From assembly GCF_017573505.1 (NCBI RefSeq), contig NZ_JAGEOJ010000006.1:62001-126000 (forward strand): a stretch of DNA of 64,000 bases, read 5' to 3'. The position numbers and the translations under genes are program-made. Shown here one piece after another: positions 35,609 to 56,917 of the stretch; within the stretch, counting starts at the first letter, position 1; each line of letters starts with the position of its first letter. Source of the DNA: Actinomadura barringtoniae. GTDB taxonomy: Bacteria; Actinomycetota; Actinomycetes; Streptosporangiales; Streptosporangiaceae. Below the pieces are notes generated by a model. That model made no database searches and was not told where the DNA came from. It worked only from the letters and a program-made list of their open reading frames with translations.

Positions 35609-36901
35609 TTAGGTGGGTTGTAGGACGGGGGCGTTGGGGGTTAGGGCGTAGGTGGTTAGGGCGTTGTGGACGGCTTGGTGGAGGTCGGCCATTTCGGTGG
35701 CGATCCAGCGGCGGGTGTCGAACATGAGCTCTAGGGAGAGTTCTGGGCCGTCGCGGTCGACGCTGAGGAGGGCCATTCCTGGCATGACGGAGTCCAGCAT
35801 CGCGCGGGACTCTTGGGGGAAGGTGAGCTCTACGCCGTCTAGGGCGTTCTTCAGGCCTAGGCCGTACTTGTCGGCGCGGTACTGGAGGAAGAGGCCGCGG
35901 AAACGGTGTTTGTCCAGCCAGCTCGCGGCCTCGGGGCAGCGGGTGGCCACTGCTTCCAGTGGATATTCCTGGTGGACGTAGGTGAGGTAGACGTCGGTGG
36001 CGACCGCGGACAGGTGGGCTTGACGGTTTGGGGCCGTGACGCGGCGGCGGAAGGCGATCTCGTTGGTGAGCAGGCCTACGGTGTCGCGGAACTCGGGGCG
36101 GCCTCGGCCGTGGACGACGCAGGTGGTGGTGACCTCGGAGCAGCCCGTCAGGGTCGCGACCGCCTCCTCGTACGCGGCTAGGACGACGTGGAAGGTCGAG
36201 CAGTGTGCCGAGGCGCATAGTTGGTCCAGCTGGGTTACTAGGCCGCGCTCTAGGCGGGTGTTGAGGAATTTCATGCGGGGGCCGGGCGGCCGGCCGCGGG
36301 CGGGGCGGCCGAAGGCGGGGGGTTCGGCGCCGGTCAGGCGGTGGGACCAGAAGTCGACGGCGCGGGCGCCCGCGCCGGTTGGTGACCAGAGGTCCTCGCG
36401 TTCCATCAGGTCGGCGCGCCGGCGCTGGTGGTCGGCGAACTGGGCGGGCACGGGTGGCAGGGTGATCGGGCCGCCTGACATCAGGTCGCGGTAGGCCAGG
36501 ATGAGTTCGCGGACGACGATCTCGATCGAGGCGATGTCGGCGACGGCGTGCGGGACGGCCACGTGCAGGGCCAGCGAACGCTCGGACTCCGCGACGGCCT
36601 CCACGCGGAAGACCGGCGGTTCGGCCGGGTCCAGTGGTACGCGCGCCCAGCGGTCCAGGGTCTCGAGGAGGTGGCCCGGTTCGGCGGAACGGCGGTGGAA
36701 GGCCACGGTCTCCGGCGTGTACGGGTGGACCCGCTGCTCGTCGGCGTCCAGGTCGACCGTCGTGCGGAGCGCCTCGTGGCGGCGGCCGACCTCGTGGGCG
36801 GCCGCCTCGAGACGGTCGAGATCGTAGGCGCCCCGCAGGACGATGGTCGCGTCGGTGACGATGCTCGGGTGGGTGACGGTCCGCTGGCTGATGGGGATCA
36901 T
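35609..36901 (-). CDS. free-standing condensation-domain / PapA-like acyltransferase
   Basis: 430-aa protein of the condensation-domain superfamily, which joins acyl thioesters to amines or alcohols. The HHxxxDG active site appears as PHAVADI: the catalytic second His and the Asp remain, the first His is Pro. It covers both lobes, with no adenylation or carrier domain attached. Last gene of the long leftward operon, 9 bp after the methyltransferase. Probably makes the final amide or ester bond on a carrier-bound fatty acyl. The 3' half has at least seven CTA leucine codons, rare in its neighbours. Confidence 0.85.
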   Translation of the reverse strand: MIPISQRTVTHPSIVTDATIVLRGAYDLDRLEAAAHEVGRRHEALRTTVDLDADEQRVHPYTPETVAFHRRSAEPGHLLETLDRWARVPLDPAEPPVFRVEAVAESERSLALHVAVPHAVADIASIEIVVRELILAYRDLMSGGPITLPPVPAQFADHQRRRADLMEREDLWSPTGAGARAVDFWSHRLTGAEPPAFGRPARGRPPGPRMKFLNTRLERGLVTQLDQLCASAHCSTFHVVLAAYEEAVATLTGCSEVTTTCVVHGRGRPEFRDTVGLLTNEIAFRRRVTAPNRQAHLSAVATDVYLTYVHQEYPLEAVATRCPEAASWLDKHRFRGLFLQYRADKYGLGLKNALDGVELTFPQESRAMLDSVMPGMALLSVDRDGPELSLELMFDTRRWIATEMADLHQAVHNALTTYALTPNAPVLQPT

Positions 36902-36910
36902 GGCGCCTGG

Positions 36911-37807
36911 TCAGACCCGTTCGAAGATGATCCGGGCGAGCCCGAGGTTGCGGCGTTCGAACTGGCGCGCCGACGACTCCAGGTAGTGGAGGTAGTCGGC
37001 CACGGTCTGGGCGCCCACGACCGCCTCGGCCTCCTCGCGCCGGGAGGTGAGGGTCTCCGCCCAGAACCGGCAGGTCCGCACGTAGTGGTCGGGGTCGTTG
37101 CGGACCGTGACCACGTCGAAGGTGCGTTCGCTGGCCTCGATGATGTCGCTGATCGGCGGCATCACCGACTCGGGGAAGATGCGTTCGATGACGAAGAGCA
37201 TCTCCTTGACGGTCTGCCGGTCCACCGCCCGGGCCCGGCCCGCCACGTTGGTCTGGAGCGCCAGCCGGCCGCCCGGCGCCAGCCAGTCGCGGCACCGGCC
37301 GAAGAACGTCCGGTAGGCCTCGATCCGTTCCTCGCGGCTCATGCCGTGCCGGGCGAAGTGCTCGAACGCTCCCAGCGAGATGATCGCGTCGTAGCGGGTC
37401 TCCTCGTGGTCCAGCCAGTTCTGGACGCGGACGTCGTAGCGCTCGTCGGTCCATTCCTTCATCGACTCCAGCTGGGCCGGGCTCAGGGTCAGGCCGACCA
37501 CGTGCTCGACGTCCTGGACCTCCACCAGGTGCCGCAGCATGCTGCCCCAGCCGCAGCCGATGTCGAGCACGCGCTTGGCGCCGGTCGCGCGGGCCCCAGT
37601 CGCCATGTAGGCGAGCTTGCGCTGCTGCGCGCTGTACAGATCGTCGTCCTCGCCTTCCCAGAGCGCGCACGAGTAGGTGCGGCTGCGGTCCAGCCACAGG
37701 TAGTAGAACTCGTTCCCCAGGTCGTAGTGGTGCCGGATCGCCTCACCGGAGGCGCCCTTGTAGGGCGACTGCCCTTCGGCTGAGACGTCCGTGGACAGGG
37801 TGGTCAT
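36911..37807 (-). CDS. cyclopropane-fatty-acid-synthase-like SAM methyltransferase
   Basis: 298-aa methyltransferase of the CFA/mycolic acid methyltransferase family. Characteristic features are IRHHYDLGNEFYYLWLD, SCALWEGEDD, motif I RVLDIGCGWGSMLRHL (~83-97), GLTLSPAQLE, and SLGAFEHFARHG. CFA enzymes methylate or cyclopropanate double bonds of acyl chains. Here it directly follows a fatty acyl-AMP ligase and a desaturase, so modification of the newly introduced double bond is plausible. The C-terminal residues differ from classical Cfa, so small-molecule methylation cannot be excluded. ATG 37807 has GAGGAG upstream. Confidence 0.9.
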   Translation of the reverse strand: MTTLSTDVSAEGQSPYKGASGEAIRHHYDLGNEFYYLWLDRSRTYSCALWEGEDDDLYSAQQRKLAYMATGARATGAKRVLDIGCGWGSMLRHLVEVQDVEHVVGLTLSPAQLESMKEWTDERYDVRVQNWLDHEETRYDAIISLGAFEHFARHGMSREERIEAYRTFFGRCRDWLAPGGRLALQTNVAGRARAVDRQTVKEMLFVIERIFPESVMPPISDIIEASERTFDVVTVRNDPDHYVRTCRFWAETLTSRREEAEAVVGAQTVADYLHYLESSARQFERRNLGLARIIFERV

Positions 37808-55433: not shown

Positions 55434-56095
55434 CGACCTCAGCCGTGAGCTGATCGGGCGCTCCTTCCCCCGTACCGCAGTCGCGAAGCAAGGCCTGCGG
55501 CGATGACTACTCCCCCGCGGATTCCCTTCGGGCCGATGCTCGAGGCACCGGCCGGCCGGGCAAGTTGGACGAGCCTCCTCCGGCGCCCCGCGCGCCACAG
55601 GAGTCGAACCCGGTCACGAACCCCGTTCCAGCGACCACTCTGACCCGAGCGTCCGCCGTGCCACAAGGCTCATACTGACCATTTACAGCAGAGAAAGCGG
55701 CGCCGCCCAGACGTCGCCCCCACCCCCGATTGATCATTTGGCAAATAGCGCACGCAATTAATCGGAAATACGCTAAGCCGAGGGCGGATTCCCTGTCAAC
55801 TAATCACACTGACCAAACGTGACTGCCAGCAATGATTTCCGTCACCGGAATCATGCGACCTGCGCCAAGGGGTGCATTTGATCTTGTGTGACTTACATCA
55901 CATTCTCACGGGCTGTAATGAGCCACCAGAAGCTCAAGCGTGACGGCACCCCTACACCGCCCCAGTCGGAACAGCCGACGAACACGGGGTTCACGAGGCC
56001 CCGGCTTGACACCACAGAAGGCGATGTAAAACCCCCGCGCCCACTTCGTCGCACCGTTCAGGGAAGCCATTCCGGAACGGACGGCCCGAACAGAC
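55434..56095. other. AT-richer non-coding region, likely regulatory
   Basis: About 660 bp between the PLP enzyme and DUF3050 genes. It is less GC-rich than its surroundings near 55730-55910. It contains a hairpin at 55832-55854 (ATGATT/AATCAT with CCG/CGG and one bulge) and a CRP-like palindrome. No credible gene on either strand. Confidence 0.6.
55887..55902. promoter_or_regulatory. CRP/GlxR-like site TGTGACTTACATCACA
   Basis: Exact TGTGA-N6-TCACA palindrome, the consensus of Crp/GlxR-type cAMP-responsive regulators, in the intergenic region upstream of the PLP enzyme gene and downstream of DUF3050. It is about 450 bp from the nearest start, so the target is uncertain. Confidence 0.6.
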
Positions 56096-56917
56096 CTATC
56101 CGGCCTGCTCCACCGCGACCCGCCCGGAGCCGGCCCGGACGGCCGCCAGGATCCCGTCCCAGAACGCGAGCCGGGCCTTGAGCGCCGTCCGCGCCGTGTT
56201 CGCGCAGTGCCGCCATTTCGCGTCGTCGTCTCCGCACAGGTCGATGAGCATGCGCATCGCCATCGGCGTGTGCTCGTCGGCGTCCACCTCGATGTGACGG
56301 CTCAGGTAGTCCTTGAACGACGCCAGCCGGCCGTCGGGGTCGTCGATGCCGACGATGTGCTCGAACATGTCGGGGATGAGGTCCTCCCGGCCGAACGCGA
56401 ACGCGGCGGCCTGGCAGTAGACGGGAGTCTCGCTGAGAACGTGCCACGTCCTGCTCACGAAGTCGGCGGCGGGCCCGGGAACGGGCGTGCATTCCAGTGC
56501 TTCCCAGATGTCGCGTCCCGCCCGCAGTTCGTCGACGAACGCCTCGATCGGCGCGGTGTCGGCCTGGGCCTCCTTCATTCCGCGCAGATAGAGCTCGAAA
56601 TGACTGGTGAAGCCCCCGCCGAACTCGTCGCTCTCCTCGATGAGCACGATCTCGTTGATCAGACGCCGGCTCGAACTGGGACCGGACGGCACCCACGGCA
56701 CCTGCACGCAGGTGAGCTCCCGCTGCAGCTTCTTCAGCAGCGACATGAAGTCCCACACGGCGAATACGTGGTGCTCCATGAAGCACGCCACGTCACCGCC
56801 CGAGTCCAGGCTCGTATAGATCGGATGACCGACGATGTCGTCCCGTAGCGGAGCGATCGACTCCTGAAGCGACAGCAAACCCGGATGCTCGTGGTCGAAA
56901 TGGTAGCGAGAGTTCAT
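56096..56917 (-). CDS. DUF3050 protein, probable heme-oxygenase-like diiron oxidase fold
   Basis: 273-aa helical protein of the DUF3050 family. Candidate metal ligands sit in three helices: CFMEHHVFAVWDF (~46-58), NEIVLIEESDE...TSHFELY (~88-110) and LSRHIEVDADEHTPMA (~206-220). The H-x3-D-x3-H spacing in the last is that of heme-oxygenase-like diiron oxidases (HDOs) such as UndA and BesC. I infer an oxidase acting on a fatty or amino acid intermediate. ATG 56917 has AAGGG 8 bp upstream. It is separated from the rest of the cluster by a long regulatory gap. Confidence 0.8.
   Translation of the reverse strand: MNSRYHFDHEHPGLLSLQESIAPLRDDIVGHPIYTSLDSGGDVACFMEHHVFAVWDFMSLLKKLQRELTCVQVPWVPSGPSSSRRLINEIVLIEESDEFGGGFTSHFELYLRGMKEAQADTAPIEAFVDELRAGRDIWEALECTPVPGPAADFVSRTWHVLSETPVYCQAAAFAFGREDLIPDMFEHIVGIDDPDGRLASFKDYLSRHIEVDADEHTPMAMRMLIDLCGDDDAKWRHCANTARTALKARLAFWDGILAAVRAGSGRVAVEQAG

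What the first reader, a model, noticed from the sequence alone, without database searches (positions are those of the whole stretch)
35609..56917. Lipid-type biosynthetic cluster without ketosynthase or NRPS module
About 21 genes in two divergent, strongly overlapping operons plus a SARP combine a FAAL, a second acyl ligase, two stand-alone ACPs, a membrane desaturase, a ferritin-like diiron oxidase, a thioesterase-like protein, a CFA-type methyltransferase, a class III aminotransferase, an ALDH, a free condensation domain and an exporter. No chain-extension enzyme is present, so a ready-made fatty acid is probably activated and tailored on an ACP, then joined to an amine or alcohol. I do not recognise a described cluster with this gene set.
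Basis: partly seen in the sequence, partly recalled or inferred. Interest (0 to 1): 0.78.

Follow-up and report, generated by a model that had tools for sequence, protein, structure and literature searches.

The report
Predicted sulfonamide-lipid biosynthetic gene cluster
An actinomycete gene cluster appears to join a fatty-acid assembly line to a rare natural machine that turns the amino acid cysteine into a sulfonamide, the chemical group of sulfa drugs, so it probably makes a kind of lipid that has not been described.

Summary
In detail: 21 genes, a minus-strand lipid set and a divergent plus-strand operon, no ketosynthase or complete NRPS module found. In altemicidin biosynthesis SbzM turns L-cysteine into 2-sulfamoylacetaldehyde and an aldehyde dehydrogenase, SbzJ, makes 2-sulfamoylacetic acid; the window's next gene is an aldehyde dehydrogenase. 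Best reading: a sulfonamide warhead joined to an ACP-tailored fatty chain. Both halves occur together in 5 of 341 family genomes, the window's included; one, G634, lacks the ALDH. In 7 of 8 Streptomyces loci the cupin module sits with amino-acid-ligase-type genes instead. Unexplained is the 574-aa protein: no Pfam family, no significant Foldseek match, and next to a small Rieske ferredoxin in 13 of 13 scanned loci; it may be a new Rieske-coupled enzyme. SbzM relatives in Actinomadura are in print (PMC9113183); I saw no lipid-type cluster in the texts read. The racemase-like and DUF3050 genes are not conserved with the cluster; 'thioesterase' is unsupported.

The parts
35609..36901 (-). Stand-alone condensation domain (430 aa), motif PHAVADI (second His and Asp of HHxxxDG kept); candidate amide-forming enzyme
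   Evidence: PF00668 109.7 bits; motif; 50-75% identical in 4 related clusters, on the flipped strand in 2 of them (G632, G634)
36911..37807 (-). CFA/mycolic-type methyltransferase (298 aa)
   Evidence: PF02353 210.1 bits; in 4 related clusters
37826..39454 (-). FAAL-type acyl ligase (542 aa), probably loads a fatty acid on an ACP
   Evidence: PF00501; best NCBIfam hits are a long-chain ligase subfamily and fatty acyl-AMP ligase subfamilies, all below cut-off; the FAAL-specific insertion was not examined
39464..40471 (-). Membrane fatty-acid desaturase (335 aa), His boxes HRLLAH, HHRRHH, HNNHH
   Evidence: PF00487 72.4 bits
40572..41984 (-). MFS exporter (470 aa, EmrB-like)
   Evidence: PF07690 165.3 bits; TIGR00711 221.9 bits, cut-off 230.2
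41988..43229 (-). Class III aminotransferase (413 aa)
   Evidence: PF00202 261.7 bits; GKALGG motif
43229..44908 (-). Second acyl ligase (559 aa; AMP-binding plus AMP-binding_C_3); candidate activator of the small sulfonamide acid
   Evidence: nearest non-orthologues in 65 genus genomes include the ligases of two hydrazine-type lipid clusters, 36%
44895..45164 (-). Acyl carrier protein 2 (89 aa, GLDSL)
   Evidence: PF00550 22.7 bits
45161..46174 (-). Alpha/beta hydrolase, hormone-sensitive-lipase type (337 aa; HGGG, GDSAGG)
   Evidence: PF07859 243.5 bits; NF058653 334.3 bits, cut-off 350
46192..47019 (-). Orphan protein, 275 aa, no family; 13 relatives found, four named ones from strains that also carry the 574-aa protein
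47016..48137 (-). Ferritin-like diiron protein (373 aa; EARH, ESRH), AurF/R2lox-like, possible acyl-chain oxidase
   Evidence: PF11583 41.4 bits, cut-off 29.6; 221 of 341 family genomes hold some relative at E<=1e-15, those listed outside such clusters mostly 46-52% identical
48245..48496 (-). Acyl carrier protein 1 (83 aa, GLSSL; TTG start chosen)
   Evidence: PF00550 33.7 bits
48686..49282 (+). GNAT-type acyltransferase (198 aa), fused to the 574-aa protein in Actinocorallia herbida
   Evidence: PF13302 23.6 bits, below cut-off 25.4; P0005
49279..51003 (+). 574-aa protein of an undescribed family (U574)
   Evidence: no Pfam/NCBIfam match; 75 relatives; AlphaFold pLDDT 89.2; no Foldseek match at E<=0.001
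51000..51248 (+). Small Rieske [2Fe-2S] ferredoxin (82 aa, CPH...CAWH)
   Evidence: PF00355 37 bits; PDB relatives are mostly Rieske components of oxygenases
51255..51509 (+). FdxA-type ferredoxin (84 aa)
   Evidence: NF045480 87.5 bits, cut-off 125
51506..52063 (+). Cupin, relative of sulfonamide synthase SbzM (185 aa)
   Evidence: 9ug7 254.8 bits, E 5.1e-75; title and 62-64% identity; His and six Cys invariant in 13 aligned cupins
52060..53415 (+). Aldehyde dehydrogenase, SbzJ-like role (451 aa; GQSC, LELGG)
   Evidence: PF00171 366 bits; 59-65% to ALDHs in non-lipid loci that hold an SbzM-like cupin against 46-50% to the nearest paralogues in its own genome
53426..54181 (-). SARP regulator (251 aa)
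   Evidence: PF03704 138.7 bits; at one end or the other of all 5 clusters
54258..55598 (-). Alanine-racemase-like protein; probably outside the core
   Evidence: PF01168 30.9 bits; not found near the cluster in four relatives
56096..56917 (-). DUF3050 haem-oxygenase-like protein; probably outside the core here
   Evidence: PF11251 310.6 bits; four relatives have it elsewhere or not at all, but it is inside the cassette in 6 of 13 contig-scan loci

Best explanation
A biosynthetic cluster for a sulfonamide-bearing lipid. Inferred from a close relative: the cupin oxidises and rearranges L-cysteine to 2-sulfamoylacetaldehyde. Inferred from pairing: the ALDH makes 2-sulfamoylacetic acid. Inferred from anatomy: the FAAL loads a fatty acid on one ACP, and the desaturase, methyltransferase and diiron protein modify the chain. 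The halves are then joined in one of two ways. Route A: the second ligase and ACP carry 2-sulfamoylacetate and the GNAT (or condensation domain) transfers it to an amine made by the aminotransferase. Route B: the aminotransferase turns 2-sulfamoylacetaldehyde into taurinamide, which the condensation domain acylates with the lipid. U574 and the Rieske protein act as an oxidising pair on one of these intermediates (least certain step). The MFS protein exports and the SARP regulates.
For: Cupin: 254.8 bits to 9ug7, entry title 'sulfonamide synthase SbzM', 62-64% identity; putative metal His and six Cys invariant in 13 aligned cupins. SbzM and SbzJ chemistry measured in PMC6331615. ALDH closer to ALDHs of non-lipid loci with SbzM-like cupins (59-65%) than to any of the 20 paralogues listed in its own genome (46-50% at best). 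Lipid genes and cupin module found together in 5 genomes. In the 341-genome family searches 7 of the 8 genomes with U574 also hold the cupin; the exception is a 26% relative. In 65 genus genomes the second ligase has relatives of 69% or more only in genomes with the cupin. The sbz pathway also uses an AMP ligase, ACPs and a GNAT to transfer 2-sulfamoylacetate, the same kinds of gene as here.
Against: No activity or product was tested. SbzJ, SbzL and SbzI sequences were not compared directly. The second ligase is only 26% identical to the ligase in the SbzM-type locus L092. One of the five clusters (G634) has no ALDH orthologue (best 47%), so the acid is not always made by it. No acyl reductase is seen, so a fatty amine (Route A) lacks an obvious source; Route B leaves the second ligase, ACP2 and GNAT without a role. 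U574 and Rieske are absent from other SbzM-type loci (L091, L092), so they are not needed for the sulfonamide itself.
Confidence: 0.7

Rival explanations
1. The cupin has diverged: it still oxidises cysteine or a cysteine derivative but gives another sulfur or nitrogen product (sulfinate, sulfonate, thiol-derived warhead), with U574 and Rieske steering the outcome.
For: U574, Rieske and ferredoxin accompany the cupin in only some SbzM-type loci; G634 keeps the cupin but lacks the ALDH.
Against: 62-64% identity to SbzM with the cupin His and all six C-terminal Cys kept; an ALDH of this type is present in 9 of 13 U574 loci.
Confidence: 0.13
2. Two pathways side by side: a small sulfonamide and an unrelated lipid.
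For: The U574 module occurs without the lipid set in 11 of 13 contig-scan loci, 10 of which hold the cupin; a related FAAL/ACP/diiron/MFS set occurs with a hydrazine-type module instead.
Against: The two halves are divergently transcribed and found together in 5 genomes of two genera. I did not search for the whole lipid half by itself, but close relatives of its second ligase (69% or more) occur, among 65 genus genomes, only in the four with the cupin.
Confidence: 0.08
3. The warhead has an N-N or N-O group (diazeniumdiolate, hydrazine, azoxy).
For: AurF-like and DUF3050 proteins both occur in the window, as in the mgo operon; the fragin set also has a cupin; the diiron protein is 63-65% identical to ones in two hydrazine-type clusters.
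Against: The cupin is SbzM-like and has no MetRS domain; none of the 21 proteins matched the Pfam families of lysine N-monooxygenase or VlmA, or a complete NRPS module; DUF3050 is not conserved with the cluster.
Confidence: 0.05
4. An operon of primary or membrane-lipid metabolism.
For: FAAL-type ligase, desaturase, CFA methyltransferase and ACP also serve ordinary lipids; some relative of the diiron protein occurs in 221 of 341 family genomes.
Against: U574 in 8 and the cupin in 11 of 341 family genomes, and in 1 of 396 phylum-sample genomes each, that one being the window's own; a pathway-type SARP and an exporter.
Confidence: 0.04

Closest known systems
sbz cluster (altemicidin, SB-203207, SB-203208; Streptomyces sp. 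NCIMB40513)
   Same: An SbzM-type cupin and an ALDH; stand-alone AMP ligases, ACPs and a GNAT used for carrier-bound acyl transfer
   Different: Builds a 6-azatetrahydroindane core; no FAAL or desaturase mentioned in the two of seven text parts read; 'ferredoxin' and 'Rieske' do not occur in its main text. Its gene table was not seen
SbzM homologues beside ATP-grasp, NRPS or PKS genes (PMC9113183, passages)
   Same: Same cupin family; Actinomadura and Actinocorallia named as hosts; the Streptomyces loci found here with amino-acid-ligase-type genes fit its type D
   Different: FAAL-type lipid clusters are not mentioned in that text ('fatty', 'lipid', 'desaturase': 0 occurrences; the figure was not seen); products unknown
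Lipid plus hydrazine-type clusters in G631 and G669 (found here; product unknown)
   Same: Related diiron protein (63-65%), MFS (49%), FAAL (32%), acyl ligase (36%), ACPs
   Different: Warhead half is lysine N-monooxygenase, cupin-MetRS fusion, DAO and saccharopine-DH-like genes, not the SbzM/U574 module
ham (fragin) and mgo (mangotoxin locus; its product leudiazen is recalled) operons
   Same: A haem-oxygenase-like protein and an AurF-like protein; ham also a cupin
   Different: mgo has an NRPS gene (ham's is recalled); DUF3050 is not part of the conserved core here; the cupin here is SbzM-type
JamABC-type alkyne and polyyne cassettes (recalled; PMC8406139 seen only in a search listing)
   Same: FAAL, ACP and membrane desaturase together, no ketosynthase
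   Different: One desaturase only, plus the cysteine-sulfonamide module

Membership tests
SbzM-type sulfonamide pathway | Close SbzM homologue with conserved cupin His | tested here: met
   9ug7: 254.8 bits, 62-64% identity; invariant His/Cys
SbzM-type sulfonamide pathway | SbzJ-type ALDH paired with the cupin | tested here: inconclusive
   Adjacent, and 59-65% to ALDHs of non-lipid loci with SbzM-like cupins; SbzJ itself not compared; ALDH missing in G634
SbzM-type sulfonamide pathway | Ligase, ACP and GNAT dedicated to 2-sulfamoylacetate (SbzL, SbzK/G, SbzI) | tested here: inconclusive
   Gene kinds present, but the ligase is only 26% identical to the one in the SbzM-type locus L092; SbzL and SbzI not compared
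SbzM-type sulfonamide pathway | L-cysteine converted to 2-sulfamoylacetaldehyde | not testable with these tools
   needs an enzyme assay
Cupin-MetRS hydrazine/hydrazone pathway (Spb40, Tri28, DobE type) | Cupin fused to a MetRS-like domain | tested here: not met
   Only cupin-type matches in 51506-52063, against cupin plus tRNA-synt_1g in L057
Cupin-MetRS hydrazine/hydrazone pathway (Spb40, Tri28, DobE type) | Lysine N6-monooxygenase (PF13434) | tested here: not met
   No match among the 21 proteins
ham/mgo diazeniumdiolate operons | NRPS plus AurF-type oxygenase plus haem-oxygenase-like protein as a unit | tested here: not met
   No complete NRPS module; DUF3050 not conserved with the cluster
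FAAL-ACP-desaturase alkyne/polyyne cassette | FAAL, ACP and one or more membrane desaturases/acetylenases acting on the acyl-ACP | tested here: inconclusive
   Gene kinds present, one desaturase with three His boxes; no comparison with JamB was made
Ketosynthase- or NRPS-based assembly line | KS domain or complete A-T-C module in the cluster | tested here: not met
   None in Pfam scans of 21 proteins
GAF-domain fold (C-terminal part of U574) | Clear structural match to GAF domains | tested here: inconclusive

The most novel reading that the evidence does not exclude
U574 and the small Rieske ferredoxin form an undescribed two-component oxidase or oxygenase in which a protein outside the Rieske-oxygenase alpha-subunit family takes electrons from the Rieske protein. 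Here it further oxidises a cysteine-derived sulfonamide, giving lipids with an unseen sulfonamide-derived group.
Probability: 0.35. Interest if true: 0.85.

Novelty: new variant of a known kind. Interest (0 to 1): 0.68.

Why it matters
Natural sulfonamides are rare: the abstract of the 2021 review (PMC9113183) counts eight sulfonamides and sulfamates from actinomycetes, and its text calls altemicidin the first cupin-derived example. A cluster that puts the same chemistry on a lipid would be a new compound class, is small enough to clone, and carries its own regulator for activation. It also exposes a protein family (U574, with a Rieske partner) that recurs with the sulfonamide cupin in Actinomadura, Actinocorallia and Streptomyces, yet has no Pfam family and no assigned function that I could find, and it makes the open question of what comes after SbzM directly testable.

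Tried and rejected
N-N/diazeniumdiolate reading: my first hypothesis, from DUF3050, AurF-like protein, cupin and Rieske. Dropped when the cupin proved SbzM-like and DUF3050 proved unlinked in relatives.

Hydrazine warhead by analogy with G631 and G669: kept only as a comparison for the lipid half.

U574 fold: Foldseek against the PDB gave 137 matches at E<=10, none at E<=0.001; VIA-align gave GAF-like rows near the noise band. The N-terminal half was not predicted or searched alone, so I do not claim a new fold. 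U574 against PDB sequences at E<=1: nothing. The profile search added two fragments only. The viral structure library was not used.

The cupin model is poor (pLDDT 55.3). I used its search only to read the title of an entry already found by sequence.

Thioesterase label for 46192-47019: no support.

Paper searches, ten in all: (diazeniumdiolate, cluster, Rieske, cupin: 0 papers; DUF3050: 7; N-N bond terms: 6; amino-acid ligase with Rieske and cupin: 0; hydrazine, FAAL, ferritin-like, Actinomadura: 16; 9UG7, 9VWB: 0; 10; 0; SbzM or broad words: two on SbzM among 20 listed), 104 (SbzM and sulfamoylacetic terms since 2019: 97 papers, 40 listed, two of them on SbzM biosynthesis). Subscription papers and preprint servers are not held, so an unseen report of a lipid-type SbzM cluster is possible. 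Papers opened, all as passages found by term unless said: PMC11705231, PMC3298696, PMC13108848, PMC13061610, PMC13274452, PMC9379638; PMC13185094 (abstract, sections 7 and 8, passages); PMC6331615 (abstract, two of seven text parts, passages); PMC9113183 (passages). None was read whole.

Full report
What is there. Between 35609 and 56917 I called 21 genes and scanned all 21 against Pfam and 20 against NCBIfam (not the SARP). The minus strand holds, from the 3' to the 5' end of the operon, a stand-alone condensation domain, a CFA-type methyltransferase, a FAAL-type ligase, a membrane desaturase, an MFS exporter, a class III aminotransferase, a second acyl ligase, an ACP, a lipase-type hydrolase, a 275-aa orphan, a ferritin-like diiron protein and a second ACP. 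The plus strand holds a GNAT, a 574-aa protein (U574), an 82-aa Rieske protein, a ferredoxin, a cupin and an ALDH. A SARP follows on the minus strand. Four of 11 minus-strand and four of five plus-strand junctions overlap. No ketosynthase or complete NRPS module was found among the 21.

The key identification. Searching the cupin against PDB sequences gave one strong match, 9ug7, at 254.8 bits and E 5.1e-75. Foldseek printed the entry title, 'Structure of sulfonamide synthase SbzM from Actinokineospora mzabensis' (released 2026-03-04), at 62-64% identity. The cupin model itself is poor; the sequence match carries the claim. In 13 aligned cupins the HTHPGHH and HAVGA motifs and a C-terminal six-cysteine pattern are invariant, and all appear in the 9ug7 alignment. 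In PMC6331615 (abstract and the first two of seven text parts, plus passages) SbzM converts L-cysteine to 2-sulfamoylacetaldehyde, SbzJ (an ALDH) makes 2-sulfamoylacetic acid, SbzL loads it on a carrier protein and the GNAT SbzI transfers it to an amine. The window's ALDH gene overlaps the cupin gene by four bases. It is 59-65% identical to ALDHs of seven Streptomyces loci and two family loci that hold an SbzM-like cupin, some of them several kilobases from it, but at best 46-50% identical to the 20 paralogues listed in its own genome.

Conservation. The U574 scan of genome contigs returned 13 loci. Within about 10 kb, or less where contigs end, the Rieske gene is present next to U574 in 13 of 13, ferredoxin in 11, cupin in 12, ALDH in 9, DUF3050 in 6 and the lipid set in 2. 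The two with the lipid set are Actinomadura sp. KC216 and A. formosensis. Of the 8 Streptomyces loci, 7 carry a gene of the ATP-grasp group c0 and 5 carry two; two members from L010, and a further ligase in L013, were confirmed as ATP-grasp with LAL_C2, a type of SbzM cluster that PMC9113183 describes (passages). Across 341 genomes of the family U574 is found in 8, counting the window's own and one 26%-identity relative, and the cupin in 11. Seven hold both; four hold the cupin without U574 (G645, G672, G411, G610). Of these G645 is a remnant with a stop in the cupin frame and G672 matches only in part. In a phylum sample of 396 each was found only in the window's own genome. Five genomes (G000, G667, G632, G634, G409) carry both halves, with 19, 19, 19, 18 and 19 of the 21 genes of the window counted without the two right-edge ones for G000; the condensation gene is on the flipped strand in G632 and G634, and the SARP is at the other end in G632. 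G634 lacks the ALDH at that place and has no orthologue elsewhere (best 47%). The DUF3050 gene is near the cluster only in the window's genome among the five; G634 and G409 have it more than a megabase away, and G632 and G667 gave no match at E<=1e-8.

How it probably works. Shown for a close relative, not here: cysteine-to-sulfonamide chemistry by the cupin. Likely from pairing: the ALDH step. Inferred from gene kinds: acyl loading, desaturation, methyl transfer and diiron oxidation of a chain on ACP1. Joining is open. Route A follows sbz: ligase, ACP2 and GNAT put 2-sulfamoylacetate on an amine. It needs a fatty amine, and no acyl reductase is seen. Route B: the class III aminotransferase turns 2-sulfamoylacetaldehyde into taurinamide and the condensation domain acylates it with the lipid. 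It needs no reductase and suits the ALDH-less G634 cluster, but leaves the ligase, ACP2 and GNAT without a role. Both give a sulfonamide lipid.

A second comparison. Two genus genomes (G631, G669) carry a related diiron protein (63-65%) with a FAAL-type ligase, ACPs, an MFS protein and an acyl ligase, joined to a lysine N-monooxygenase, a cupin-MetRS fusion and other hydrazine-type genes. Among 65 genus genomes their ligases, with one in G678 that I did not inspect, are the closest to the window's second ligase after its orthologues. Two warhead types on a related lipid chassis is a tempting pattern from few examples.

Known or new. SbzM homologues in Actinomadura and Actinocorallia are in print, and haem-oxygenase-like oxidases near ATP-grasp ligases have been surveyed (PMC13185094, abstract and sections 7 and 8), so neither the cupin nor the Streptomyces module is a discovery as such. 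The lipid-type cluster, the U574-Rieske pairing and the 275-aa orphan (13 relatives) I did not find described in the texts and searches listed under Tried and rejected.

Noticed in passing
window 54258-56917: An alanine-racemase-like gene and a DUF3050 haem-oxygenase-like gene lie next to the cluster. DUF3050 is inside the cassette in 6 of 13 contig-scan loci but not near the cluster in four close relatives; a solved DUF3050 structure (9vwb) exists.
   Followed up: partly
L057/L058 (G631) and L059/L060 (G669): A lipid-plus-hydrazine-type cluster: FAAL-type ligase, ACPs, diiron protein, lysine N-monooxygenase, cupin-MetRS, DAO, saccharopine-DH-like, and in L059 a 710-aa haem-oxygenase-like protein.
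   Followed up: partly
L090 (G645:C18), about 8680-10500: A remnant of the same cluster: split condensation-domain match, cupin frame with a stop, and SARP fragment side by side, as if the genes between were lost.
   Followed up: no
L015 (Ramlibacter MAG), 1010-9064: U574, Rieske, ferredoxin, haem-oxygenase-like protein, an unrelated cupin-like frame (by eye) and a reductase-like gene, with a nitronate-monooxygenase-family gene further on: U574 outside actinomycetes, SbzM-type cupin not found.
   Followed up: partly
L038 (G641), 8761-11188: A 431-aa distant U574 relative beside a ferredoxin-like and a haem-oxygenase-like frame, near ABC-transporter-like and ketosynthase-like frames, all read by eye.
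   Followed up: partly
L091 (G610) and L092 (G411): Other SbzM-type loci: cupin (45-47%) with ALDH (60-62% to the window's), ligase and ACP; L091 also a GNAT and an ATP-grasp-like frame; no U574 match.
   Followed up: partly
window 46192-47019: The 275-aa protein is an orphan family with 13 relatives found among 5.8 billion proteins; four named ones come from strains that also carry U574.
   Followed up: partly
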